Origin: Pseudomonas sp. LFM046
Lineage (GTDB): Bacteria; Pseudomonadota; Gammaproteobacteria; Pseudomonadales; Pseudomonadaceae
Direction: 5' to 3'
DNA length: 64,000 bases
Assembly: GCF_000949385.2 (NCBI RefSeq)
Contig: NZ_JYKO02000001.1
Coordinates: 1,326,620 to 1,390,619, forward strand
The notes under the pieces are model-generated. The model saw nothing but the letters and a program-made list of their open reading frames with translations, had not been told where the DNA came from and did not search any database. Within the stretch, counting starts at the first letter, position 1; every line of letters begins with the position of its first letter. Below are positions 5,516 to 18,445 of the stretch, in pieces. Position numbers and translations under genes: made by a program.

Positions 5516-5992
5516 ATGGATAGATATTTCGTGCTGCCGTTCTGGCTGGCGGGGCAGCACTTGGCGGTGAGCCTGGACACTGTCGTCCGCGTGCTCCCGG
5601 CCCTGGCGTGGACGCCTCTCCCCGGTGCGCCTGACACGGTAACCGGGCTGGTCAACGTGCGCGGGCAGGTTTTGCCCGTGGTGGATCTTGCGCGACGTTT
5701 TTCCTGGCCTTCGGCCGCTCCCGCCCTGTGGCAACCCTTCCTCTGGCTGAAAACCCGGCAACGTGAACTGGTGGTGCCCGTGGAGGCCGTGGAGGCCGCC
5801 ACCAGCTGCGCTGCCGCGGATTTTTCCCCCGCGCCCCACCCGCAGGTACCGTCCGCCATCCTCAAGGGGGTGGTGCGCACGGCCGAGGGGCTGCTGCTGA
5901 TCCAGGATGTCGAGCAGGTCTTGTCCGATGCGGATGAAGAGCGCCTGACCGCAGCCCTTGCCCAGGCAAGGAGCGCCGATGGAAACGATTGA
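5516..5992 (+). CDS. CheW-domain coupling protein (WspB-like)
   Basis: First gene of the alternative chemosensory operon, 158 residues, essentially a single CheW domain. It begins MDRYFVLPFWLAGQHLAVSLDTV, and the typical GLVNVRGQVLPVVDLARRF segment lies at about residues 43-62. It is expected to bridge receptors and the CheA kinase in cytoplasmic or membrane arrays. Its 3' end overlaps the CheR start by 14 bases. A second CheW gene two positions on repeats the WspB/WspD arrangement, in which the two couplers are not equivalent. Confidence 0.88.
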   Translation: MDRYFVLPFWLAGQHLAVSLDTVVRVLPALAWTPLPGAPDTVTGLVNVRGQVLPVVDLARRFSWPSAAPALWQPFLWLKTRQRELVVPVEAVEAATSCAAADFSPAPHPQVPSAILKGVVRTAEGLLLIQDVEQVLSDADEERLTAALAQARSADGND

Positions 5993-7493
5993 GGCCCTCT
6001 GCTCGGCGCGCGTACTGAACGTGCTGCTCAATAAGGTTCATCAGCACCTTGGACAGGATTTCTCCGGGGGGCGCACCAGCGACCTGCTTCGCCGCCTGAA
6101 GTTGCTGGCGCTGGAACGGGGCGAGGGCGACCTGCAGCTCTGGCTGGAGACACTGGCTTTTGCGGAATGGGACGACGCCTTGGTCCAGAGTCTGACGCCG
6201 GTGTTCTCCGTTGGCGAAACCTATTTCCGGCGCGATTCCGAGGCCCTCGACTGGGTGGCCCGCCAGCACCTGGCGCCGTTGATTGCGCGTCGCCGTGAGG
6301 ATGGGCGGCGGCGTCTGCGTATCTGGAGCGCCGCCTGTTGCACCGGCGAGGAGGCCTACAGCTTGCTGTTCATCCTCGATGACCTGCTGGGCGCCGAGCG
6401 CGCCAGTTGGACCGTCGAGCTGCTGGCCAGCGACCTCAATGCCAGCTTCCTGCAGCGCGCCGAGCACGGCAGTTATGGACAGAACGCCTTCCGTCGCAAT
6501 GAAGACGACTTCCGCCGCTGCTATTTCCAGGCGGAAGGCCGGCAGTGGCGGGTGCGGCCACAGTGGCGGGGGCGTATCCGTTTCTTCCAGCACAACCTGG
6601 TGCAAGGGCAGCTGCCGGACGCCGCCAAGGGACTTGCGGAGGCCGACCTGATCCTCTGCCGCAATGTGCTGATGTATTTCTCGCCGGAGCAGGCTTCCGG
6701 CGCCTTGCGCCGCCTGCTCGCGAGCCTGGCGGCTGATGGTCTGCTGTTGCTCAGCGCAGTGGAGGCCGGCATCGCCACCCAGGCGGGGCTCAATGGTTTC
6801 TGGGCCGGCAGCAATTACGCACTGGTGCCCGGTAGCCGGCGTCCGGCACTCCGGACCGCCGTGGCGCCGCCCCCTGTAGCGCCTGTGGAACCGGCCACGC
6901 GCCGGACGCCGCCACCCGCTCCACGGCTGGTTGAGAAGAAAGCGGCGGCGCCCAGTCCCGCCCCGCCGCCCGTGGCCAGCGCCAGCGACTCGAATTGGCA
7001 GCAGGCCAGGGATGCCTTGGCCCACGGGCGTTACCCACAGGCCCAGCAGGCGCTGCTGGATTACCTCGCCTGCGCCGGCCTTGGTCAGGCGCAGAAACGC
7101 GATGCCTGTCTGCTGATGGCGCGCAGTTGGGCGAACCAGCAGCGCGCGGACGAAGCGGAAACCTGGTTGCAGCGTGCGCTGGCGCTGGACCCGGCGTCGG
7201 CCGCTGCCTACTGGCTGACTGCAATGTTGGCGCAGCAGACTGGCGCGGAACAGGCGGCGCTGGTGGCGCTGCAGAAGGCGCTCTACCTGGAACCGGACTT
7301 CATCCTGGCGCACTTCTACCAGGCCCGGTTGCTGCGCCTGCGGGGCCAACTGGCCGCCAGTGACAAAGCCCTGCGCAATTGCATGCAGCTGCTCGGCCGG
7401 CGGGCGCCGGACGACCTGGTGTCCGAAGGCGACGGGCTGAGCTGTGCGCAGCTCCTGCGCCTGTGCGAGCAACTGAAAGAGGGACGACGCTGA
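5979..7493 (+). CDS. CheR-type MCP methyltransferase with TPR domain (WspC-like)
   Basis: SAM-dependent receptor glutamate methyltransferase. The start at 5979 has RBS AAGGAG. The N-terminal CheR region includes FSVGETYFRRD and the SAM-binding WSAACCTGEEAYSL; DLILCRNVLMYFS is the conserved LCRNV block. A Pro/Ala-rich linker (about residues 285-330) joins it to a C-terminal TPR region (about 335-490, for example YPQAQQALLDYL and ADEAETWLQRALALDPASAAAYWLTA). The CheR-TPR form is typical of WspC and FrzF-like proteins, where the repeats tune receptor methylation. Its stop overlaps the next start (TGATG). Confidence 0.92.
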   Translation: METIEALCSARVLNVLLNKVHQHLGQDFSGGRTSDLLRRLKLLALERGEGDLQLWLETLAFAEWDDALVQSLTPVFSVGETYFRRDSEALDWVARQHLAPLIARRREDGRRRLRIWSAACCTGEEAYSLLFILDDLLGAERASWTVELLASDLNASFLQRAEHGSYGQNAFRRNEDDFRRCYFQAEGRQWRVRPQWRGRIRFFQHNLVQGQLPDAAKGLAEADLILCRNVLMYFSPEQASGALRRLLASLAADGLLLLSAVEAGIATQAGLNGFWAGSNYALVPGSRRPALRTAVAPPPVAPVEPATRRTPPPAPRLVEKKAAAPSPAPPPVASASDSNWQQARDALAHGRYPQAQQALLDYLACAGLGQAQKRDACLLMARSWANQQRADEAETWLQRALALDPASAAAYWLTAMLAQQTGAEQAALVALQKALYLEPDFILAHFYQARLLRLRGQLAASDKALRNCMQLLGRRAPDDLVSEGDGLSCAQLLRLCEQLKEGRR

Positions 7494-8095
7494 TGGCCGG
7501 AGGGAGCATGGGTAACTGGGCTGAGATCCATCAGCGCCTGGCGGATTTCGAACGGCGGATCGAGGGCGGCTTTGCCGTCAGCGCCGAGGAGCGCCAGGCC
7601 CGTCTGGAGACACGCAGCCGCGAGTGGGCGCGGACCAGTCCGCAGGACGAGGATGACGCCTGGCTGGAAGTGCTGAGCTTCAACCTCAGCTCGGAAATCT
7701 ATGCGGTGGAGGCCTGCCATGTGTCGGCTGTGCTGCCGCTGCCACAGTTCACCCCGCTGCCGGGCACGCCGCCGTTTGTGCTGGGCATCGTCAACGTACG
7801 CGGGCACATCGTTTCGGTGCTGGATTTGCGGGTGTTCTTCGAGCTGCCCATCGAGGGGCTTTCCGACAAGAACTTCCTGGCGGTGTTGCGGGGGCCGGAG
7901 ATGGAGTTCGGCCTGCTGATCGACCGGGTGCGGGGCATCGTGCGTATTCCGCGCGCAAGCCTGCAGAACGGACTGGCGAATCTGACCGGGATACGAGCGA
8001 GTTATCTGCTGGGGGTCACCCCTGATCAGTGGACGGTGTTGGACGGCGCACGGCTGCTGGGCGACCCCAGCCTTCGCATCACGGCCGACGAGTAG
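7493..8095 (+). CDS. CheW-domain coupling protein (WspD-like)
   Basis: Second coupling protein, 200 residues. The start at 7493 overlaps the CheR stop. An alternative ATG at 7508 has a GGAGGG site, but only 3 nt away. An N-terminal charged helical extension of about 60 residues (MGNWAEIHQRLADFERRIEGG) precedes the CheW domain, marked by FNLSSEIYAVEA and GIVNVRGHIVSVLDLRVFFELP. Such N-terminal extensions are typical of WspD-type couplers and of CheW in Dif/Frz-type systems. It lies 18 bases before the first receptor gene. Confidence 0.88.
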   Translation: MAGGSMGNWAEIHQRLADFERRIEGGFAVSAEERQARLETRSREWARTSPQDEDDAWLEVLSFNLSSEIYAVEACHVSAVLPLPQFTPLPGTPPFVLGIVNVRGHIVSVLDLRVFFELPIEGLSDKNFLAVLRGPEMEFGLLIDRVRGIVRIPRASLQNGLANLTGIRASYLLGVTPDQWTVLDGARLLGDPSLRITADE

Positions 8096-8113
8096 GTACA
8101 AGGAGGAACGACC

Positions 8114-9745
8114 ATGCTGGGCAATGTCATGAACCTGCGGATCGGCAACAAGCTGATGCTTGCCTTTGGCGTATTGATCCTGGGCTTTGGCGCGCTGTTG
8201 TTCGTCACCCTGGAGAGCTTCTCCGACCTGCAGACGGTCGAGGAGCAGCAATTCAAGCGCCGCTACGCGCGAATCTCCGACGTGAAGGAGCTGATGCTCA
8301 ACCTCACCCTGCAGCGCGTCGCGGTGCTGCAGGCGCTGCACGAAGGCTCGACAAAGAGCCAGGAAGACAAACTGCGGGACAACGTCGCGGCCAATGACAA
8401 GGTACTGGACCGCCTGCGTGATGCTGTGGTCGACGACCAGACGACCGTCGATCTGCTCGACCAGATCAAGGTCCTGCGTGCCGACTATCAGCGTACGCGC
8501 GACGGCGAGGTGCTGCCGCTGATCGACAGCGGCAAGGTCGAAGAGGCGCGCACGCTGATCGAAGGTCCGCAGAAGCAGCGGCTGGAGAATATCTACGCGC
8601 TGGGACAGCAACTGGTGGAGCAGACCGACAATCGCATCCATGCCGGCATCGAACAGTCGAGCCAGGCCCTGGACGCCATGCGCGAGCGGATTTTCCTGAT
8701 GGCGCTGGGCCTGGTGATGATCACTGGTTTGCTCGCCTGGTTGCTCAGCCGGCACATCGCTCAACCCTTGTCGCGCCTGACCGGCTGGGCCGAGCAGATC
8801 GGCCGGGGCGAGATCCCCCGGGATATTCCCAACAGCGATCGCCAGGACGAAGTGGGCCGCCTGGGCGTGGCCTTCGTCGCCATGAGTCGTTACCTGCGTG
8901 AGCTGGTGCAGGAGTTGAATGAAGGGATTTCGGTGCTGGCCACCGCCAGCGAGGAAATCCTCGCGGTGACCACGCAGGTGGCTTCGGGCACCCAGGAGAC
9001 CGCCACGGCGATCAGCGAGATTGCCACCACGGTGGAAGAGGTGAAGCAGACGGCGGTCCTCTCCGGCGGCAAGTCGCAGGCGGTGACCGACAGCACCGAG
9101 CGCACCCGCCAGGTGGCCCTGGCCGGGCGCCAGGCGGTGGAGGAAACCCTCAAGGGCATGGGGCAGATTCGTGTGCAGATGCAGGCGGTGGCGGAAAGCG
9201 TGATGCGTCTGGGGGAGCAGAGCCAGACCATCGGCGAGATCGTCGCCTCGGTCAACGACCTGGCCGAGCAGTCCAACTTGCTGGGGGTGAACGCCTCGAT
9301 CGAGGCAGTGAAGGCCGGCGAGGCGGGCAAGGGCTTCTCGGTGGTGGCGCAGGAGGTGAAGACCCTGGCCGAGCAGTCCAAGCAGGCCACCGCGCAGGTG
9401 CGCAGCATCCTCAGCGACATCCAGAAGGCGATGACCAAGGCGGTGCTGCAGGCGGAGGAGGGCAGCAAGTCGGTGGAGAGCGGCTACGAGCGGGCGCAGG
9501 CCAGTGGCGAGGCGATCCGCAGCCTGAGCGACAGCATCGAGGAGTCCAGCGAGATGGCCTTGCAGATCGCGGTGACCAGCCAGCAGCAGATGATCGGCAT
9601 GGACCAGATCGGCAGCGCCATGGTGAACATCCGCCAGGCCAGCCAGGACAACGTCGGCGGTACCCGCCAGGTCGACCAGGCCGCCCGCAACCTGCACCAG
9701 CTGGGTTTGCGGCTCAAGGGGCTGTCCGGCCAGTTCAAGCTGTAA
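8114..9745 (+). CDS. Methyl-accepting chemotaxis protein 1 of tandem pair
   Basis: Transmembrane receptor of the Wsp-like operon, 543 residues. TM1 is at about 14-34, a helical periplasmic four-helix-bundle-type sensor at about 35-192, TM2 at about 193-213, then HAMP ([22 protein letters not shown]) and a cytoplasmic signalling helix from about 265. The hairpin tip reads [21 protein letters not shown], which departs from the common ALNAAIEAARAGE form and suggests a distinct alternative-function class. There is no C-terminal CheR/CheB-tethering pentapeptide. From about residue 263 to the end it is nearly identical to the next receptor, while the sensor halves differ. Confidence 0.93.
8899..9742 (+). 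repeat. Direct repeat copy 1: MCP signalling domain
   Basis: About 840 bp that recurs, at a constant offset of 1792 bp and without gaps, at 10691-11534 in the next receptor gene. Comparing by eye I count only about a dozen to fifteen differences, most of them at third codon positions. This points to recent duplication or ongoing gene conversion. Confidence 0.9.
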
Positions 9746-9776
9746 CGCGGCGCCCTGGGCGCAAGGAAGGGCACGG

Positions 9777-11537
9777 ATGATGGACAAATTGGCGGACTTG
9801 CGAATCGGCAGCAAGCTGATGCTGGCATTCGCCGTTCTGATTCTCGGCTTCAGCGGCATCTACTACTTCAGCCTGGCGAGCAACGCCGAACTGCAGCAGC
9901 GGGAGGCCGAGGCCTTCAGGCGCAGCTATGAGCAGCTGTCCGATGTGAAGGAGTTGCGCATCAATATCCTGGCGCAACGCATCAACCTGTTGCAGGAGAT
10001 GGCCCAGGGTACGCAAATCGCCGAAATGGAGGCCATGGAACAAGACGTCGAGCGCCTGAAAAACCTCAATACCGTGCTGCTGGAGCGCCTCCGGGAAGGG
10101 CTGGGCGAGGACCGCGAAGGGCGCGAAATCCTTGCGCAATTGCTGACGGTACGCACGGCCTATGCCGCGACCCGTGATACGGAGGTCTCCCCCCTGATCC
10201 GTGCCGGAAAGTTGGAGCAGGCCCGCACCCTGGCCTTCGGGGTGCAGGCCGAGCGGCTGGTGCAGATCCATAAGCTCGGCGAGCAGTTCGCCGATTTCAC
10301 GGAGCGGCGCGTCGAGGAGAACCTCGTGCGGGCGCAGGATGTCCTGAAGGCTCAACACGATTGGATGCTGAAGCTGGGCGTGCTGCTGGTGCTGCTCAGC
10401 GCAGGGGTCGCCTGGCTGCTCAGCCGGCACATCGCCCAGCCGGTGGCGCGCCTGACGGGCTGGGCCGAGCGCATCAGCACCGGTGAGATTCCCAACGACA
10501 TGACCAGCATCGAGCGCCAGGACGAAGTGGGCCGTCTCGCCCAGGCTTTTACGCGCATGGGGCACTACCTGCAGGGGATGGCAGGCAGGGCTGAGTCCCT
10601 GGCCCAGGGCATCTTGCACGAGACGGGGCAGGACGTGCCGGAGACGGATGTGCTGGGTCGCGCCTTCGCCACCATGGCCGGCAATCTGCGCGCACTGGTG
10701 CAGGAGCTGAACGAAGGGATTTCGGTGCTGGCCACCGCCAGCGAGGAAATCCTCGCGGTGACCACGCAGGTGGCTTCGGGCACCCAGGAGACCGCCACGG
10801 CGATCAGCGAGATCGCCACCACGGTGGAAGAGGTGAAGCAGACGGCGGTCCTCTCCGGCGGCAAGTCGCAGGCGGTGACCGACAGCACCGAGCGCACCCG
10901 CCAGGTGGCCCAGGCCGGGCGCCAGGCGGTGGAGGAAACCCTCAAGGGCATGGGGCAGATTCGTGTGCAGATGCAGGCGGTGGCGGAAAGCGTGATGCGC
11001 CTGGGGGAGCAGAGCCAGACCATCGGCGAGATCGTCGCCTCGGTCAATGACCTGGCCGAACAGTCCAACTTGCTGGGGGTGAACGCCTCGATCGAGGCGG
11101 TGAAGGCCGGCGAGGCGGGCAAGGGCTTCTCGGTGGTGGCGCAGGAGGTGAAGACCCTGGCCGAGCAGTCCAAGCAGGCCACCGCGCAGGTGCGCAGCAT
11201 CCTCAGCGACATCCAGAAGGCCATGACCAAGGCGGTGCTGCAGGCGGAGGAGGGCAGCAAGTCGGTGGAGAGCGGCTACGAGCGGGCGCAGGCCAGTGGC
11301 GAGGCGATCCGCAGCCTGAGCGACAGCATCGAGGAGTCCAGCGAGATGGCCCTGCAGATCGCGGTGACCAGCCAGCAGCAGATGATCGGCATGGACCAGA
11401 TCGGCAGCGCCATGGTGAACATCCGCCAGGCCAGCCAGGACAACGTCGGCGGTACCCGCCAGGTCGACCAGGCCGCCCGCAACCTGCACCAGCTGGGCTT
11501 GCGGCTCAAGAGCCTGTCCGGCCAGTTCAAGCTGTGA
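9777..11537 (+). CDS. Methyl-accepting chemotaxis protein 2 of tandem pair
   Basis: Second receptor, 586 residues, starting 31 bases after the first. It shares the N-terminal frame ([23 protein letters not shown]1 about 14-32), a diverged periplasmic sensor, TM2 at about 197-215, HAMP and the same unusual signalling domain. Compared with receptor 1 it carries about 43 extra residues between HAMP and the signalling helix ([20 protein letters not shown]...[16 protein letters not shown]). These look like a partial second HAMP or linker and would change coiled-coil phase. Both receptors end LSGQFKL. They probably sense different inputs and feed the same kinase. Confidence 0.93.
10691..11534 (+). 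repeat. Direct repeat copy 2: MCP signalling domain
   Basis: Partner of the 8899-9742 block, about 98% identical by eye and co-linear. The identity starts just after the diverged HAMP/linker part and ends at the stop codon (TAA in copy 1, TGA in copy 2). Confidence 0.9.
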
Positions 11538-11544
11538 GGCGGCC

Positions 11545-13743
11545 ATGAGTATGGATCGGGAAGTCCTCAAGCAACGCCTGTTGGCCAGCTTCCGCGGCGA
11601 GGCGGAAGAGCGTCTGGCCGTGCTGGCCGACGGTCTGGCCAACTGGCGCGAAGCCACTGCCACGGCGGACTCCCTCGAGTCCCTGTTCCGCGAGGTGCAC
11701 AGCCTCAAGGGGGCGTCGCGGGCGGCCGGGGTCACGGAAATCGAACAACTCTGCCACGCCTGGGAAAGCCTGTTGGCGGCGGTGCGCCAAGGCCGGCTGA
11801 CCCTGACGCTGGAGCGCGTCGAGCTGAGCCGGCGTGCCCTCAAGGCGGTGCAGAAACTGCATGACGGCCAGGCGTTGGACGAGACGGAGCGGCGGCGCCT
11901 GATCGACAACCTGGAAGCGGCCGCCCAGGGCGAGGCCATCGAGTTGCCGCAGGAACAGGCCGAAGTGCCCCAGGCACCCCACGACCCGGCGACCGTGCGG
12001 GTGCCGGCGCAGCGTCTGGATGCCCTGCTGTTTCAGGGCGAATCCCTGTTGCAGCACAAGCTGGAGGCCCAGGCCCACGCGCGCAGCCTGCAGGCTCACA
12101 TGGCCGCCTTCGACCCGCAGCGTGCCAAGCGCCTGCTCACCGGTGGCGTACTCAAGCAATTGCGCGACGGGCTCGAACACCTGCCACCGAGCACCGAGGA
12201 TGCCCTGAGGAGTGTCCTCGATTACCTGGACTGGAGCCTGGCGCAGATGGACCGCCTGCACTTCGGCGCGACACGCCTGGCCAAGGCCGGCAACCACCTG
12301 GCGCAGGGACTCGCGCAGTTGTCGGACGGCCTCAACGATGAATTGCAGCGGGTGCTGCTGCTGTCCGGCGCGAGCCTGATGGAAGGGCTGCCGGCGATGG
12401 TTCAGGACCTCGCCAGCCAGGCCGGCAAGCGGGTCGCGTTCGAGGTCCGTGGCGAAAGCCTGCAGATCGACAAACGCATCCTCGACGAATTGCGCACCGT
12501 GCTGACCCACCTGCTGCGCAATGCGATCGACCATGGGGTGGAAGCACCGGATCTGCGCAGCCGCGTGGGCAAGGACCCGGTCGGCCGCCTGCACGTGGAG
12601 CTGGTGCAGGAGTCAGCGGACCGCTTCGAGCTGCGGGTGAGCGACGACGGCCGTGGGCTCGACCTCGATCGCCTGAAAGCCAAGGCGGTGTCCAGCGGTC
12701 TGCTCAGCCAGGATCAGGCCGAGGAGCTGTCGGACGCGGAGGCGTGCAAGCTGATCTTCGCCTCTGGCCTTTCCACCAGCGCCATCATCACTGACCTCTC
12801 CGGGCGCGGCCTGGGCATGGCTATCGTGCAGGAGACGGTGGAACGGCTGGGTGGGCGCATCGAACTGGAGTCCCACGCCGGCAAAGGCACCTGCTTCCAC
12901 CTGCACCTGCCGCTCAGCCTGTCGACGTTCCGCGCGGTGATCGTGCGCGACGCGGAGCGGGTGTTCGCCATTCCGGCGCTGGCGGTCGAGCGCTGCCTGC
13001 GCCTGCCGTTGAGCGCCATGAAGAACCTGGAGAACCGTCCCTCGGTCACGGTGGATGGCGAAGTCATGCCGCTCTGGACCCTGGCCGAAGTGCTCGGCCT
13101 GGGGCAAGTGGCGCAGAGTGGCGACATCCTGACCTTGCTGTTGCTCAAGGTGCGCGGCGAGCGCTTTGTGCTGCTGGTGGAGGAATTGCTGGGCGACCAG
13201 GAAATCATCGTCAAGGGCCTGGGCCAGCAGTTGGTGCGAGTGCGCAACCTGCTGGGCGCCACGGTGCTGGGCGACGGCCAGCTGGTGCCCATCCTGCATC
13301 CTGCCGACCTCTATCGCAGTGCCCTGGATACCCGTGATTCGAGCTTCAGCCAGCAGGAGCGGGCACGTACCGGCGTGGCCATGCAGCGCTTGTTGATCGC
13401 CGAGGACTCCTTCACCTCGCGGGGGCTGCTCAAGGCCATCCTCGAAGGCGCCGGCTACCAGGTCGCCACCGCCAACGACGGCCTGGAAGCCTGGAATGCG
13501 TTGAAGCAGGGGCAGTTCGACCTGCTGGTGTCGGACGTGGAAATGCCGCGGCTGGACGGTTTCACCCTGACCAGCCGGATTCGCGCCGACCGCGAGCTCG
13601 CCAGTCTGCCGGTGGTGCTGGTGACGGCCTTGCACTCGGCCGAGGACCGCGCGCGGGGCCTGGAGGCCGGCGCCAATGCCTATCTGGTGAAGAGCGGATT
13701 CGACCAGGAAAGCCTGCTGGATGCGATTCGCCGGTTGATTTGA
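11545..13743 (+). CDS. CheA-type hybrid histidine kinase with receiver (WspE-like)
   Basis: Kinase of the array, 732 residues. An N-terminal Hpt domain has phospho-acceptor His52 (FREVHSLKGASRAAG). Then come a P2/dimerisation stretch, the HATPase domain with N-box HLLRNAIDHGVEAP, G1 box VSDDGRGLDL and G2 box DLSGRGLGMAIV, and a CheW-like P5 domain (about residues 455-590). The C-terminal REC (about 613-732) has MQRLLIAEDS and phospho-acceptor Asp664 (VSDVEMPRLDG). The single Hpt plus fused REC is the WspE/FrzE architecture; the REC may act as phosphate sink. It lies 7 bases after the second receptor. Confidence 0.94.
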   Translation: MSMDREVLKQRLLASFRGEAEERLAVLADGLANWREATATADSLESLFREVHSLKGASRAAGVTEIEQLCHAWESLLAAVRQGRLTLTLERVELSRRALKAVQKLHDGQALDETERRRLIDNLEAAAQGEAIELPQEQAEVPQAPHDPATVRVPAQRLDALLFQGESLLQHKLEAQAHARSLQAHMAAFDPQRAKRLLTGGVLKQLRDGLEHLPPSTEDALRSVLDYLDWSLAQMDRLHFGATRLAKAGNHLAQGLAQLSDGLNDELQRVLLLSGASLMEGLPAMVQDLASQAGKRVAFEVRGESLQIDKRILDELRTVLTHLLRNAIDHGVEAPDLRSRVGKDPVGRLHVELVQESADRFELRVSDDGRGLDLDRLKAKAVSSGLLSQDQAEELSDAEACKLIFASGLSTSAIITDLSGRGLGMAIVQETVERLGGRIELESHAGKGTCFHLHLPLSLSTFRAVIVRDAERVFAIPALAVERCLRLPLSAMKNLENRPSVTVDGEVMPLWTLAEVLGLGQVAQSGDILTLLLLKVRGERFVLLVEELLGDQEIIVKGLGQQLVRVRNLLGATVLGDGQLVPILHPADLYRSALDTRDSSFSQQERARTGVAMQRLLIAEDSFTSRGLLKAILEGAGYQVATANDGLEAWNALKQGQFDLLVSDVEMPRLDGFTLTSRIRADRELASLPVVLVTALHSAEDRARGLEAGANAYLVKSGFDQESLLDAIRRLI

Positions 13744-13790
13744 GGGGCGCAGGTCCATGGGGGGCCTGCGGGGGAGAATGAGGTGGAACC

Positions 13791-14861
13791 ATGCGCGTAC
13801 TGATAGTCGACGACTCGGTGGTAGCACGCATGCTGCTGCGCGCGGTGTTCGAAGGGGAGGGTTATCTGGTGCGGGAGGCCTCCTCCGGTGACGAGGCGCT
13901 GAAGGTGTTGCTGGGCTTCACCCCCGATATCGTCACCATGGATGTGCACATGCCCGGCATGGACGGTTACGAGACCACCGAGCACATTCTTGAACGCTAT
14001 CCGCTACCGGTGGTGGTGCTGACCGCCAGCGCCAACGCCTATGCGGCAGCCACCGCCATGCGTGCCCTGGAGGCGGGCGCCCTGGCGGTGCTGGAGAAGC
14101 CGTCCGGCCTGGATTCGCCGGATTTCGACGAGCGCGTGGCCGAAGTGCTGCGGACGCTGCGCAGCATGGCCCAGGTGAAGATCGTGCGGCGTCCTCGCCG
14201 GGGCAACGGCGAAGGCCCTCAGCAGCAGTCGATATCCCAGCTGGTGGCGCATGCCGCACACCTGTCGCCGAAGATCGTGACCATCGCCGCCTCGGCGGGG
14301 GGGCCGGCAGCGCTCAAGAGCCTGCTGGAGCGGCTGCAACCGCCGCAGCCCTGGCCGCTGGTGCTGGTGCAGCACATCGCCGCCGGTTTCCTGCCGAGTT
14401 TCCGCGAGTGGCTGGAAACGCTCACGCACCTGCCGGTAGTGATCGCCGAGGACGGCCAGGTTTTGGTCCCGGGGCGGCTTTATCTTGCGCCGGATGGCCA
14501 TCACCTGGGCTTTTCCAGCGACCGCCGGGTGGCCCTTGATGGAGGCCCTCTGGAGGAACTGGTGCGGCCGTCGGCCAACTTCATGTTCCGCTCCGCTGCC
14601 CGTCATTTCGGCAACCAGGTCATCGGTATCCAACTGTCCGGGATGGGGCGCGACGGTGCCCAGGGGCTGGCCGAACTGCATCGCGCCGGCGCCCTGACGC
14701 TGGTGCAGGAACCGGCCAGCGCCATGATCGATTCGATGCCGCAGGCTGCCATCGGCTTGCAGGCGGCTCGCCAGGTACTGACGACGGACGCGATGGCGGC
14801 CGTGCTCAATCTGATTGCTGAACGTGTGGCGTCGAAGGGCGCAGGTGTGGGGAGGGAATGA
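13791..14861 (+). CDS. CheB methylesterase/deamidase response regulator (WspF-like)
   Basis: Removes receptor methyl groups to reset the array, 356 residues. The N-terminal REC domain has the acidic pair Asp7/Asp8 and phospho-acceptor Asp51 (IVTMDVHMPGMDGYE). The C-terminal esterase has catalytic Ser in TIAASAGGPAAL, His in VLVQHIAAGF and Asp in SGMGRDGAQGL. In the Wsp system, loss of WspF locks the array on and raises c-di-GMP; by analogy this gene should be the negative arm here. Its stop overlaps the next start (ATGA). Confidence 0.93.
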   Translation: MRVLIVDDSVVARMLLRAVFEGEGYLVREASSGDEALKVLLGFTPDIVTMDVHMPGMDGYETTEHILERYPLPVVVLTASANAYAAATAMRALEAGALAVLEKPSGLDSPDFDERVAEVLRTLRSMAQVKIVRRPRRGNGEGPQQQSISQLVAHAAHLSPKIVTIAASAGGPAALKSLLERLQPPQPWPLVLVQHIAAGFLPSFREWLETLTHLPVVIAEDGQVLVPGRLYLAPDGHHLGFSSDRRVALDGGPLEELVRPSANFMFRSAARHFGNQVIGIQLSGMGRDGAQGLAELHRAGALTLVQEPASAMIDSMPQAAIGLQAARQVLTTDAMAAVLNLIAERVASKGAGVGRE

Positions 14862-17800
14862 CCATGTACGCCGATGCGGACATCCTGGTGGTGGAGGACA
14901 GCCCGACGCAGGCCACCGAGTTGCAGTACATGCTGGAATCCGTCGGTTGCCAGGTGCGTATTGCCCGAAACGGGGTCGAGGCCCTGGCGCGCATTGCCGA
15001 GCAGCGTCCGACCATCGTCATCAGCGACATCGTGATGCCGGAAATGGACGGCTACGAGCTGTGCCGTCAGCTCAAGGGCTCGGCCCAGACCCAGGCCATC
15101 CCGGTCATTCTGGTCACCTCCCTGGCCGATGCCCGCGATGTGGTCCACGGGCTGGCTTCAGGGGCCGACAACTTCATCGTCAAGCCGTTCGACGAGAAGT
15201 ACCTGATGTCGCGCATTCGCTACTTCCTGGTCAACCTGGAGCTGCGCACCCACGAGCGGGTGCAGATGGGCGTGGAAGTGGTGCTGGAAGGGGAGCGCCA
15301 CTTCATCACCGCCGGACGCCAGCAAATCCTCGACCTGCTGATTTCCACCTATGAGCAGGGTGTGCGCCTGAATCACGAGTTGCAGGCCAAGCACGACGAG
15401 CTGGCCCGCAGCAACTCGCTGCTCAACTGCCTGTTCCATTTCACCAGTGGCCTGACCGACGCCCAGAGCGAGCAGCATGTGATCGACGCCTCGCTGCGGC
15501 GCATCCTGGAGTTCCCCGATGCGGAAGCTGCCTGGTTGTTGATGGCCGATTCCCTGGAGGCTGGTGATTCGGCCCGCGTGGCGGGGACGCGCGCGCGTGG
15601 GCGAGCCTTTGGCCTGGAGACGCTGTCGGCCTGCGCGCGCAGTTGCCCATGCCGGCACGCCTGGGTCAGCGACGCGATGAGTCAGCCGTGCAATTTCGAA
15701 GGCTGTCCCGCCCTGGCCGAGCTGCCCGGTAGGCCGGTGCATGCCAGCATTCCGTTGATACTGGGTGGCGAGATCATCGGCATGCTCAACGTGGTGCAGC
15801 GCGACGCCAAGGCCTGGAGCGACGAGTCGCTCAACGCGCTGGCCTCGATCGGCCGGCAGCTGGCGATGGCGCTGGGCCGGGTGCGCCTGTTCGAGAGCAT
15901 GGAGAAGCTGGTGGAACAGCGCACCGAGGCGCTGGCCAAGAGCGAAGCCTTGTTGCGCAACGTGCTGGACAGCCTGCCGGTGGGCGTGTTGGTGAGCGAC
16001 CCGCAGGGCCGGCTGATCATGAGCAACCCCGAAAGCAGTCTGATCTGGGGTGGCTCACATCCCATCGGCGTGGAAAGCGATCATCAGTACCGGGGTTGGT
16101 GGGCCGACAGCGGCGAGCCGATCAAGTCGGACGACTGGTCGGTGATGCGTGCGGTCAAGCAAGGACTGGTGTCACGCAACGAGATGATCGACATCCAGAC
16201 CTTCAACGGCCGGCACAAGACCATTCTCAATTCGGCGGTGCCCATCCTCGACAGGAACGACACGGTCCAGGGGGCGATCGTGGTTTTCCAGGACGTCACC
16301 GAGCAGCGCCGCCGCGACCTGGAAATCCGCATCCGCACCCGTGCGGTCGAGGCCAGCGTGAACGCCGTGGTGATCACCGACAACGAGCAGCCGGACCAGC
16401 CCATCGTCTACGTGAACCCGGCCTTCGAGCGCATCACCGGCTACTCGGCCGAGGAAGTGATCGGCCGCAACTGCCGTTTCCTCCAGGGCGAGGACCGCGA
16501 CCAGCCGAGCCTCGACAACATCCGCCGGCTGCTCCACGCCCAGGAGGAGGGCGGTGCGCTGTTGCGCAACTACCGCAAGGACGGCTCGGCATTCTGGAAC
16601 GACCTGAAAGTGGCGCCGGTGGTGAACGACCGGGGCAAGGTCAGCCACTTCGTCGGCATCCTTCACGACATCACCGAAGCCAAGCGCTACCAGGAAGAAC
16701 TGGAGCACCAGGCCAACCATGACAGCCTCACCGAGCTGCCCAATCGCAATCTGCTCAACGACCGTATCAGCCAGGCCATCGCCCAGGCCGCGCGCAAGCA
16801 TGGCAGCTTCACCCTGGCGTTCATGGATATCGACCGCTTCAAGGTGGTCAACGACAGCCTCGGCCACAACGCCGGTGATCAGTTGCTGATCCAGGTGGCG
16901 AACCGCCTGCGCAGCCGGGTGCGAGAGATCGATACGGTGGCGCGCCTGGGGGGCGACGAGTTCGTCATCCTGCTGACCGATACCGACCAGCTCGGCGAGC
17001 AGGTGTCCTGGCTGGAGCGGCTCAAGCAGAGCATCGCCGCACCGGTGATGCTGGGCGAGCAGGAGGTGGCGGTGAGTTGCAGCATCGGCTTCTGCTGCTA
17101 CCCCAGCGACGGTCGCGATGCCAGCACGCTGCTGCGTAATGCCGACACGGCGATGTATCAGGCCAAGCACCAGGGACGTAACCGCATCTGCGCTTTCATG
17201 CCGGAGATGAACCAGCAGGTGCAGATGCGCCTGTCGGTGGAGCGGGAGACCCGTCTGGGCCTGCAGAACCACGAGTTCATGGTGGTCTATCAGCCGCAGC
17301 TGGATCTGCAGAATGGCCGGTTGTGCGGTTTCGAAGCCCTGGTGCGCTGGAACCGTGGCGGCAAGATGATCAGCCCCAACGAGTTCATCCCGCTGGCGGA
17401 GGAGACCGGCTGGATCGTCTCGATCGATTTCTATGTGTTTGAAATGGTCTGCAAGCAACTCTCCATCTGGCGCCGCGTGTTCAACCACGGGCTGAGCGTG
17501 GCGGTGAACTTCTCTGCGATCAGCTTTGCCGAGACCGACTTCATCGAGCGGGTGCTCGGCATCCTCAAGATGCACGGGATCTCACCGCGCTGGATCAAGA
17601 TCGAGCTGACCGAAAACATCCTGATGACCAACGCCGATGACGCCCTGCAGAAGATGCGTGTGTTGTGTGACGAGGGCATTCGCTTCTCCATCGACGATTT
17701 CGGTACGGGTTACTCCTCGCTCGGCTACCTGAAGCGCTTCCCCTTCAGCCAACTGAAGATCGACCGCAGCTTCGTCACCGATGTGCTGACCGAGCCGGAC

Positions 17801-18445
17801 AGCGCCTCGCTGGCGCGCTCGATGATCTCGATCGGCCACAACCTGGGCATCAAGGTGATCGCCGAAGGCGTGGAGCAGGTGGAGCAGCTGGGCTTCCTGC
17901 GCGCCGCCGGCTGTGACGAGTTGCAGGGTTACTACTACTCCCCGCCGCTGCCACCCCAGGCGTGCATGCAGTTCCTGCAGGAGGGCGCGTCACTCTCGTT
18001 GCCGTCGAACATCCTCGACGGCAGTGAGCGCTACCTGCTGATCATCGACGACGAGCCGGGCATCCTCAACGCGCTGAAGCGGACCCTACGGCTGGAGAAC
18101 TATCGGATTCTCACCGCCAGTTCCAGCGCCGAAGCGATGAACCTGATGGCGACCTATGGCGTGGACGTGGTGCTGACCGACCTGCGCCTCGCCGACATGA
18201 ACGGGGTGGAATTCCTGCGCCGGCTCAAGGTGATCTTCCCTGACGTGATCCGCATGGTGCTCAGTGGCTCCACCGAGGTCAGCAGCATCCTCAAGTCGGT
18301 GAACGAAGGCGTGATCTATCGCTTCATCACCAAACCCTGGGACCCCGACGACCTGCGCATTCAGTTGCGCGAGGCCTTCCAGCAGCGGGAGCTGCACCGC
18401 GAGATCAAGCGCATGCGCCAGCAGATCGCATTGGCCCAGGGGTGA
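14858..18445 (+). CDS. REC-GAF-PAS-PAS-GGDEF-EAL-REC cyclic-di-GMP output protein
   Basis: Output of the chemosensory operon, 1195 residues. Domains in order: REC (Asp57 in VISDIVMPEMDG); a helical linker; a GAF-like domain (about 190-345) containing a cysteine cluster (C259, C263, C265, C278, C283); two PAS/PAC units (about 365-620; the second has the GRNCRFLQG motif seen in LOV-type domains); GGDEF with intact GGDEF at 698-702 and an upstream REID inhibitory site; EAL with EAL at 826-828 plus ELTENIL, DDFGTGYSSL and AEGVEQ; and a second REC at about 1055-1175 (Asp1108 in LTDLRLADMNG), similar to RpfG receivers. Both catalytic signatures are intact, so synthesis and hydrolysis of c-di-GMP are both possible. 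It occupies the place of WspR. Confidence 0.92.
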   Translation: MTMYADADILVVEDSPTQATELQYMLESVGCQVRIARNGVEALARIAEQRPTIVISDIVMPEMDGYELCRQLKGSAQTQAIPVILVTSLADARDVVHGLASGADNFIVKPFDEKYLMSRIRYFLVNLELRTHERVQMGVEVVLEGERHFITAGRQQILDLLISTYEQGVRLNHELQAKHDELARSNSLLNCLFHFTSGLTDAQSEQHVIDASLRRILEFPDAEAAWLLMADSLEAGDSARVAGTRARGRAFGLETLSACARSCPCRHAWVSDAMSQPCNFEGCPALAELPGRPVHASIPLILGGEIIGMLNVVQRDAKAWSDESLNALASIGRQLAMALGRVRLFESMEKLVEQRTEALAKSEALLRNVLDSLPVGVLVSDPQGRLIMSNPESSLIWGGSHPIGVESDHQYRGWWADSGEPIKSDDWSVMRAVKQGLVSRNEMIDIQTFNGRHKTILNSAVPILDRNDTVQGAIVVFQDVTEQRRRDLEIRIRTRAVEASVNAVVITDNEQPDQPIVYVNPAFERITGYSAEEVIGRNCRFLQGEDRDQPSLDNIRRLLHAQEEGGALLRNYRKDGSAFWNDLKVAPVVNDRGKVSHFVGILHDITEAKRYQEELEHQANHDSLTELPNRNLLNDRISQAIAQAARKHGSFTLAFMDIDRFKVVNDSLGHNAGDQLLIQVANRLRSRVREIDTVARLGGDEFVILLTDTDQLGEQVSWLERLKQSIAAPVMLGEQEVAVSCSIGFCCYPSDGRDASTLLRNADTAMYQAKHQGRNRICAFMPEMNQQVQMRLSVERETRLGLQNHEFMVVYQPQLDLQNGRLCGFEALVRWNRGGKMISPNEFIPLAEETGWIVSIDFYVFEMVCKQLSIWRRVFNHGLSVAVNFSAISFAETDFIERVLGILKMHGISPRWIKIELTENILMTNADDALQKMRVLCDEGIRFSIDDFGTGYSSLGYLKRFPFSQLKIDRSFVTDVLTEPDSASLARSMISIGHNLGIKVIAEGVEQVEQLGFLRAAGCDELQGYYYSPPLPPQACMQFLQEGASLSLPSNILDGSERYLLIIDDEPGILNALKRTLRLENYRILTASSSAEAMNLMATYGVDVVLTDLRLADMNGVEFLRRLKVIFPDVIRMVLSGSTEVSSILKSVNEGVIYRFITKPWDPDDLRIQLREAFQQRELHREIKRMRQQIALAQG

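What the first reader, a model, noticed from the sequence alone, without database searches (positions are those of the whole stretch)
5516..18445. Wsp-like array whose output is a two-receiver GGDEF-EAL protein instead of WspR
Gene content matches Wsp (two CheW, CheR-TPR, CheA-REC, CheB), but the output enzyme has REC domains at both ends, GAF, two PAS, and intact GGDEF and EAL sites with an I-site. One kinase could thus set the direction (make or break) of c-di-GMP depending on which receiver is phosphorylated, while the GAF/PAS part adds cytoplasmic signals. The receptor tip [15 protein letters not shown] also differs from WspA.
Basis: partly seen in the sequence, partly recalled or inferred. 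Interest (0 to 1): 0.62.

Follow-up and report, generated by a model that had tools for sequence, protein, structure and literature searches.

The report
Chemosensory array driving light-sensing c-di-GMP enzyme
A Pseudomonas carries a second chemotaxis-like sensor system, not the known surface-sensing Wsp system, whose output is an enzyme that also has a blue-light sensor domain and that probably breaks down (and may also make) the messenger c-di-GMP, so chemical and light signals could meet on one protein.

Summary
It is not Wsp. A genuine wspABCDEFR operon coexists in the same genome, and CheA phylogeny puts the window kinase in a separate clade with a different gene order (an AU test rejects grouping it with Wsp). 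The same operon occurs in about 27 other Pseudomonas/Stutzerimonas genomes; distant relatives across Gammaproteobacteria have exchanged effector domains.

Two points change the interpretation. (1) The C-terminal receiver has lost its phosphorylation site in 17 of 27 complete orthologues, while the N-terminal one is intact in all, so 'which receiver is phosphorylated sets the direction' is unlikely as a conserved mechanism. (2) The second PAS is a LOV blue-light domain (GRNCRFLQG) with photo-adduct Cys539 and other flavin contacts conserved, but the active-site Gln replaced by Leu. EAL catalysis is kept in every member examined; GGDEF is broken in three distant ones.

Best reading: CheA phosphorylates the N-terminal receiver; that signal, GAF/PAS inputs and blue light set a c-di-GMP enzyme whose most conserved activity is hydrolysis. 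New variant of a known kind (ACF chemosensory system). No step has been assayed.

The parts
5516..5992 (+). CheW coupling protein 1
   Evidence: PF01584, E 1e-22
5979..7493 (+). CheR methyltransferase fused to TPR repeats
   Evidence: PF01739 E 7e-35; TPR matches below Pfam cut-off; TPR region aligns across 23 sequences; start codon choice inferred (ATG at 5979)
7493..8095 (+). CheW coupling protein 2 (ATG at 7493 overlaps the end of cheR)
   Evidence: PF01584 E 2e-25; start inferred from orthologue lengths of about 200 aa
8114..9745 (+). Chemoreceptor 1: 4HB sensor, HAMP, MCP signalling domain
   Evidence: PF12729, PF00672, PF00015
9777..11537 (+). Chemoreceptor 2: diverged 4HB sensor, HAMP plus an extra 39-residue HAMP-like insert, near-identical signalling domain
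   Evidence: receptor with this insert also in L055 and L077
10689..11534 (+). Signalling half of receptor 2, 96-99% identical in DNA (per 40-codon block) to receptor 1 (8897-9742): recent gene conversion
   Evidence: sensor halves only about 50-70% identical; separate trees of the two halves
11545..13743 (+). CheA hybrid kinase Hpt-HATPase-CheW-REC (phospho-His 52; REC Asp 664)
   Evidence: Pfam; catalytic residues invariant in 28/28; CheA tree
13791..14861 (+). CheB methylesterase with receiver domain
   Evidence: PF01339 E 4e-54; Asp51 and S/H/D triad invariant in 29/29
14858..18445 (+). Output enzyme, 1195 aa, REC-GAF-PAS-LOV-GGDEF-EAL-REC
   Evidence: Pfam, solved-structure search, model
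14870..15232 (+). N-terminal receiver, phospho-acceptor Asp57 (15026-15028)
   Evidence: E13 D14 D57 T87 K109 invariant in all 28 rows listed
15233..15454 (+). Conserved adaptor between REC and GAF (predicted beta-hairpin plus long helix)
   Evidence: REC-linker module found only in 5 of 369 class genomes, all carrying this CheA type; secondary structure (low confidence at the hairpin)
15455..15892 (+). GAF domain with conserved cysteines C259, C263, C265, C283
15950..16312 (+). First PAS domain
   Evidence: poorly modelled
16325..16693 (+). LOV domain: GRNCRFLQG, photo-adduct Cys539 (16472-16474); active-site Gln replaced by Leu602 (16661-16663)
   Evidence: best solved-structure matches are LOV photoreceptors, E to 1e-35; flavin-contact residues conserved
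16700..17212 (+). GGDEF diguanylate cyclase domain with RxxD I-site (R689, D692)
17240..17977 (+). EAL phosphodiesterase domain, all catalytic residues present
   Evidence: E826 N884 E916 D946 D947 K967 E1003 Q1023 in 29/29
18026..18397 (+). C-terminal receiver: Asp1108 (18179-18181) intact here, degenerate in most orthologues

Best explanation
This is a dedicated chemosensory system of the ACF (alternative cellular functions) kind, distinct from Wsp. Two membrane receptors with different periplasmic sensors but one shared signalling tip control CheA through two CheW proteins; CheR-TPR and CheB adjust the receptors. CheA passes phosphate to CheB and to the N-terminal receiver (Asp57) of the output enzyme. 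Through the REC-linker-GAF-PAS-LOV chain this sets the activity of the GGDEF-EAL part. The LOV domain most likely binds flavin and adds blue-light control by the Cys539 adduct. The most conserved catalytic activity is EAL hydrolysis, so the likely net effect is controlled lowering of c-di-GMP, opposite in sign to Wsp, with GGDEF either a second activity or a GTP-binding regulatory domain. The C-terminal receiver is probably structural or regulatory and not a conserved phosphate target. Shown by sequence: gene content, phylogeny, conservation and degeneration of sites, LOV identity. Inferred: phosphotransfer, photochemistry, net direction.
For: Domains. Conserved operon in about 27 other genomes. 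CheA clade separate from WspE. N-REC, CheA and CheB active sites invariant. REC-linker module found only in 5 of 369 class genomes, all carrying this CheA type. Receptor tip class and kinase co-occur in 5 of 18 genus genomes and are both absent from the other 13; the three operons without a receptor each have one unlinked receptor with this tip type. LOV: structure matches, flavin contacts and Cys conserved in 30/30 apart from one Q543 change; LOV domains lacking the Gln are shown to signal, including a LOV-GGDEF fragment from a LOV-GGDEF-EAL protein (PMC9098866); SL2 LOV-GGDEF-EAL is a blue-light-activated phosphodiesterase (PMC8846402). EAL intact in all members, GGDEF degenerate in L075, L124 and L125.
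Against: No biochemical test of any step. GGDEF is intact in nearly all Pseudomonas orthologues and has an I-site in most, so net cyclase activity is possible. The LOV Gln is replaced by Leu in 29 of 30 sequences, which often weakens signalling. The C-terminal receiver is intact in this very genome (DD/D/S/K) and could be phosphorylated here. Some kinase relatives (L133, L136) have WspR-like REC-GGDEF outputs.
Confidence: 0.62

Rival explanations
1. One reading: one kinase phosphorylates two receivers of the output enzyme, and which receiver is phosphorylated decides between synthesis and breakdown of c-di-GMP.
For: Both receivers, GGDEF and EAL are intact in the window protein. Free-standing relatives of the GGDEF-EAL-REC part mostly have an intact C-terminal receiver.
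Against: C-terminal receiver active site degenerate in 17 of 27 orthologues (Asp to Glu, Gly or Gln; Lys lost; acid pair lost), including close sisters of the window, with at least 4 changes on the tree; absent from L075, L124 and L125. Its sequence drifts fastest of the output domains (62% mean pairwise identity against 84% for the N-terminal receiver).
Confidence: 0.1
2. The enzyme is mainly a diguanylate cyclase: CheA phosphorylation of the N-terminal receiver activates GGDEF, as in WspR, and the EAL domain trims the signal.
For: GGDEF acidic pair intact in 28 of 29 and I-site Arg in 25 of 29 sequences; WspR and L133/L136 outputs are REC-GGDEF.
Against: GGDEF broken in three distant members with EAL fully intact; the closest functional analogue, SL2, acts as a phosphodiesterase.
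Confidence: 0.25
3. The operon is a diverged Wsp system that swapped its output gene.
For: Same set of components, CheR-TPR and CheA-REC architecture; CheA is 33-34% identical to WspE; equal receptor length from tip to C terminus.
Against: Separate CheA clade, AU tests p 1e-35 and 3e-5; different gene order; Wsp coexists in the same genome.
Confidence: 0.05
4. The LOV domain is a relic: flavin pocket kept but signalling lost, so the enzyme answers only to CheA and to GAF/PAS ligands.
For: Active-site Gln replaced by Leu in 29 of 30 and Val in one.
Against: Photo-adduct Cys and seven flavin-contact residues conserved across about 27 species, which a relic would hardly keep; LOV domains lacking Gln do signal.
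Confidence: 0.2

Closest known systems
Wsp system (WspABCDEFR, Pseudomonas)
   Same: ACF-type chemosensory pathway with two CheW, CheR-TPR, CheA-REC, CheB and a c-di-GMP output; receptor equally long from tip to C terminus
   Different: Separate CheA clade, receptor gene between the second cheW and cheA, different tip, output REC-GAF-PAS-LOV-GGDEF-EAL-REC instead of REC-GGDEF; coexists with Wsp in this genome
ACF gene clusters with CheR-TPR (PMC3447774)
   Same: CheR-TPR with a multidomain response regulator; that survey already found REC fused to both GGDEF and EAL in two clusters, and noted PAS/GAF in some outputs
   Different: No LOV domain, no pseudo-receiver and no family of this kind described in the text read
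SL2 of Synechococcus elongatus (LOV-GGDEF-EAL)
   Same: LOV domain followed by GGDEF-EAL; blue light activates c-di-GMP hydrolysis
   Different: SL2 has the canonical LOV and no chemosensory kinase; here the enzyme is a CheA-operon response regulator and the LOV lacks the Gln
Mesorhizobium loti Gln-less LOV-GGDEF-EAL (WP_140774521.1, PMC9098866)
   Same: LOV without the active-site Gln joined to GGDEF-EAL
   Different: Met instead of Leu; no receiver or chemosensory operon reported in the passages read
Halomonas chemosensory cluster 2 (PMC5907407)
   Same: Wsp-like ACF cluster with a non-WspR c-di-GMP output
   Different: Output is Hpt-REC-REC-GGDEF; gene order differs; L139 looks like this type and its CheA falls elsewhere in the tree

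Membership tests
Wsp | CheA inside the WspE clade | tested here: not met
   (p-AU 1e-35 with Pseudomonas WspE; 3e-5 with all Wsp-type kinases)
Wsp | Gene order receptor-CheW-CheR-CheW-CheA-CheB-output | tested here: not met
   Window order is CheW-CheR-CheW-receptor(s)-CheA-CheB-output
Wsp | Output WspR (REC-GGDEF) or WspH | tested here: not met
   PMC8552884 states that all Wsp systems use either WspR or WspH
Wsp | Surface-contact response | not testable with these tools
   needs experiment
ACF chemosensory class | Multidomain response regulator as output | tested here: met
   criterion from PMC3447774
ACF chemosensory class | CheR fused to TPR | tested here: met
   (individual TPR matches are below the Pfam cut-off)
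ACF chemosensory class | Assignment by the published class models (MiST) | not tested
   models not available here
LOV photoreceptor domain | Photo-adduct Cys in GxNCRFLQ | tested here: met
   C539 in 30/30
LOV photoreceptor domain | Flavin-contact residues T, N, R, Q, R, N, N | tested here: met
LOV photoreceptor domain | Active-site Gln | tested here: not met
   Leu602; such domains exist in nature and can signal
LOV photoreceptor domain | Flavin binding and blue-light photocycle | not testable with these tools
   needs purified protein
Active GGDEF and EAL enzymes | Catalytic motifs intact | tested here: met
   for the window and its orthologues; GGDEF not met in L075, L124, L125
Functional receiver (C-terminal REC) | Acid pair, Asp, Ser/Thr, Lys | tested here: inconclusive
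   Intact in the window; degenerate in 17 of 27 orthologues

The most novel reading that the evidence does not exclude
A chemoreceptor array and a blue-light LOV sensor converge on one c-di-GMP enzyme: CheA phosphorylation and light act together as a gate on c-di-GMP breakdown, giving Pseudomonas a light-conditioned counterpart, opposite in sign, to Wsp.
Probability: 0.45. Interest if true: 0.75.

Novelty: new variant of a known kind. Interest (0 to 1): 0.6.

Why it matters
Chemosensory control of c-di-GMP is known mainly from Wsp, which raises c-di-GMP. Here a separate, conserved system in many environmental pseudomonads appears built around a light-sensing enzyme whose most conserved activity is hydrolysis. 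It gives a testable example of a receptor array and a photoreceptor sharing one effector, and of a chemosensory family that keeps its array and REC-linker adaptor while exchanging effectors (GGDEF-EAL, histidine kinase). The paired receptors with gene-converted tips and the unlinked receptors of the receptor-less operons also offer a natural test of how arrays stay insulated in cells with some 40 receptor domains.

Tried and rejected
Wsp membership: rejected by tree and gene order. Two-receiver direction switch: not supported by C-terminal receiver conservation. Conserved genomic neighbourhood: flanking genes are not shared among orthologous operons, so neighbours gave no functional clue. The full-length structure model (mean pLDDT 73.5, pTM 0.38) supports domain borders and a folded C-terminal receiver but not domain arrangement; no fold search was run on it. 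A class-wide search with the whole output protein found only partial matches (the PAS/LOV-GGDEF-EAL(-REC) part) at the threshold used. Literature searches found no chemosensory response regulator with a LOV domain; the library holds open-licence papers only, and supplements could not be read.
Full report
Observation. The operon runs from 5516 to 18445 with overlaps or short gaps: CheW, CheR-TPR, CheW, receptor 1, receptor 2, CheA (Hpt-HATPase-CheW-REC), CheB and a 1195-residue output protein. The genome is about 5.97 Mb, its relatives are Pseudomonas, and it has 16 CheW-domain and about 40 MCP-signalling matches.

Wsp coexists. Locus L009 of the same genome carries WspA, B, C, D, E, F and R in the usual order. 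The window CheA is only 33-34% identical to this WspE. All five genomes of the genus sample that have the window-type CheA also have a WspE-like CheA; outside that sample WspE was found in 4 of 21 genomes carrying the operon. The two systems are therefore distributed independently.

A conserved family. The operon was found with the same order in five relatives and in further Pseudomonas and Stutzerimonas records, about 27 in all counting records truncated at contig ends. Flanking genes are not shared, consistent with transfer as a cassette. A distant, complete relative is L075, a gammaproteobacterial MAG. Class-wide search found CheA relatives at 41-46% identity, closer than Wsp, and their operons share the order CheW-CheR-CheW-receptor-CheA-CheB-output. 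Outputs vary behind a common N-terminal REC-linker(-GAF): GGDEF-EAL (L124, L125, L075), histidine kinase (L127 and a second output in L124); deeper branches L133 and L136 have REC-GGDEF. The REC-linker module (output residues 1-200) was found in only 5 of 369 class genomes at E below 1e-32, all of which carry this CheA type.

Phylogeny. The CheA tree separates this clade (29 rows, support 94/95) from the Wsp clade (100/100). Forcing the Pseudomonas family together with Pseudomonas WspE costs 237 log-likelihood units (p-AU 1e-35); with all Wsp-type kinases 82 units (p-AU 3e-5). Some deep branches are long, so the exact sister relation of the two clades is uncertain.

The two receivers. In the output protein the N-terminal receiver's E13, D14, D57, T87 and K109 are invariant in all rows listed, as are the active sites of CheA, its receiver and CheB. 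The C-terminal receiver is present in every complete Pseudomonas-type orthologue, but its five-residue site is intact in only 10 of 27; the Asp becomes Glu, Gly or Gln, and the Lys and the acid pair are lost in various lineages, with at least four changes on the tree. It is absent from L075, L124 and L125. Free-standing relatives of the GGDEF-EAL-REC part, including a paralogue in this genome (L093), mostly have an intact one. So phosphorylation of the C-terminal receiver cannot be the conserved switch, though it remains possible in this species, where the site is intact.

Catalysis. All eight EAL catalytic residues checked are present in 29 of 29 sequences. Among the Pseudomonas-type proteins GGDEF is intact (one reads SGDEF); L075 is degenerate; and the I-site Arg is lost in the three P. 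indica-type sequences and L075. In the three distant members with GGDEF-EAL outputs the GGDEF motif is broken (LADDRF, SADYF, AGDDF) while EAL is intact. Hydrolysis is therefore the most conserved activity; bifunctionality in Pseudomonas remains possible.

The LOV domain. Searching solved structures with the second PAS (residues 488-616) returns LOV photoreceptors at E down to 1e-35, among them bacterial short LOV proteins and YtvA. The adduct Cys539 and the residues corresponding to YtvA T30, R63, R79, N94 and N104 are present in 30 of 30 sequences, and the Q66 equivalent in 29 (the YtvA correspondence is by alignment and my own knowledge). The active-site Gln is Leu in 29 and Val in one. PMC9098866 shows that LOV domains without this Gln still signal, often more weakly, that Leu is among the commonest natural replacements, and that a LOV-GGDEF fragment of a natural Gln-less LOV-GGDEF-EAL protein is light-repressed. 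SL2, a LOV-GGDEF-EAL protein, is a blue-light-activated phosphodiesterase (PMC8846402). Blue-light input is thus likely but not shown.

Receptors. Receptors 1 and 2 share about 96-99% DNA identity per 40-codon block over the signalling half but only about 50-70% over the sensor half. In trees, the signalling halves pair within each genome (window, L055, L077) while the sensor halves and a 39-residue HAMP-like insert do not; gene conversion is the simplest reading. The tip is 72-76% identical to tips of family members elsewhere but 40% to WspA. In the genus sample, receptors with this tip occur only in the genomes that have the kinase (5 of 18 for both). Three operons lack a receptor gene, and each of those genomes has one unlinked receptor of this tip type with several HAMP repeats. 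This supports a dedicated, insulated array.

Mechanism and limits. The best-supported chain is receptors to CheA to Asp57 of the N-terminal receiver, then through linker, GAF, PAS and LOV to GGDEF-EAL, with blue light acting at Cys539. The first links follow from established chemosensory biochemistry (Wsp, Che); the net sign (lower c-di-GMP) is inferred from EAL conservation and from SL2. Nothing here measures activity. The structure model supports the domain borders but not the arrangement.

Relation to what is known. The ACF survey of CheR-TPR clusters (PMC3447774) already reported REC-GGDEF-EAL outputs and PAS/GAF additions, so the general kind is known. The Wsp survey (PMC8552884) reports only WspR or WspH outputs. 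In the papers searched I found no chemosensory response regulator with a LOV domain. I therefore rate it a new variant of a known kind.

Noticed in passing
window 8897-9742 and 10689-11534: Signalling halves of the two tandem receptors are almost identical in DNA while the sensor halves have diverged: recent gene conversion, also seen in the receptor pairs of L055 and L077.
   Followed up: yes
window about 15632-15706 (output residues 259-283): Four cysteines in the GAF domain (C259, C263, C265, C283) are invariant in 29 sequences, and three are kept in distant L124 and L125: a possible metal, iron-sulfur or redox site.
   Followed up: partly
L057, L061, L066: Operons without any receptor gene; each genome has a single unlinked receptor with the same tip type and several HAMP repeats.
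   Followed up: yes
G000:C1:3914333-3916954 (L093): A paralogue in the same genome with GAF/PAS domains, a canonical Gln-containing LOV, GGDEF, EAL and an intact C-terminal receiver; not next to any CheW or MCP match found.
   Followed up: partly
L124 15095-18370, L127 5119-7740: Sister operons use the same REC-linker-GAF front end joined to a histidine kinase instead of GGDEF-EAL.
   Followed up: partly
L050, L068, L069 output proteins: The P. indica-type clade has lost the I-site Arg of GGDEF (R to G), suggesting cyclase activity there without product inhibition, or no cyclase role.
   Followed up: no
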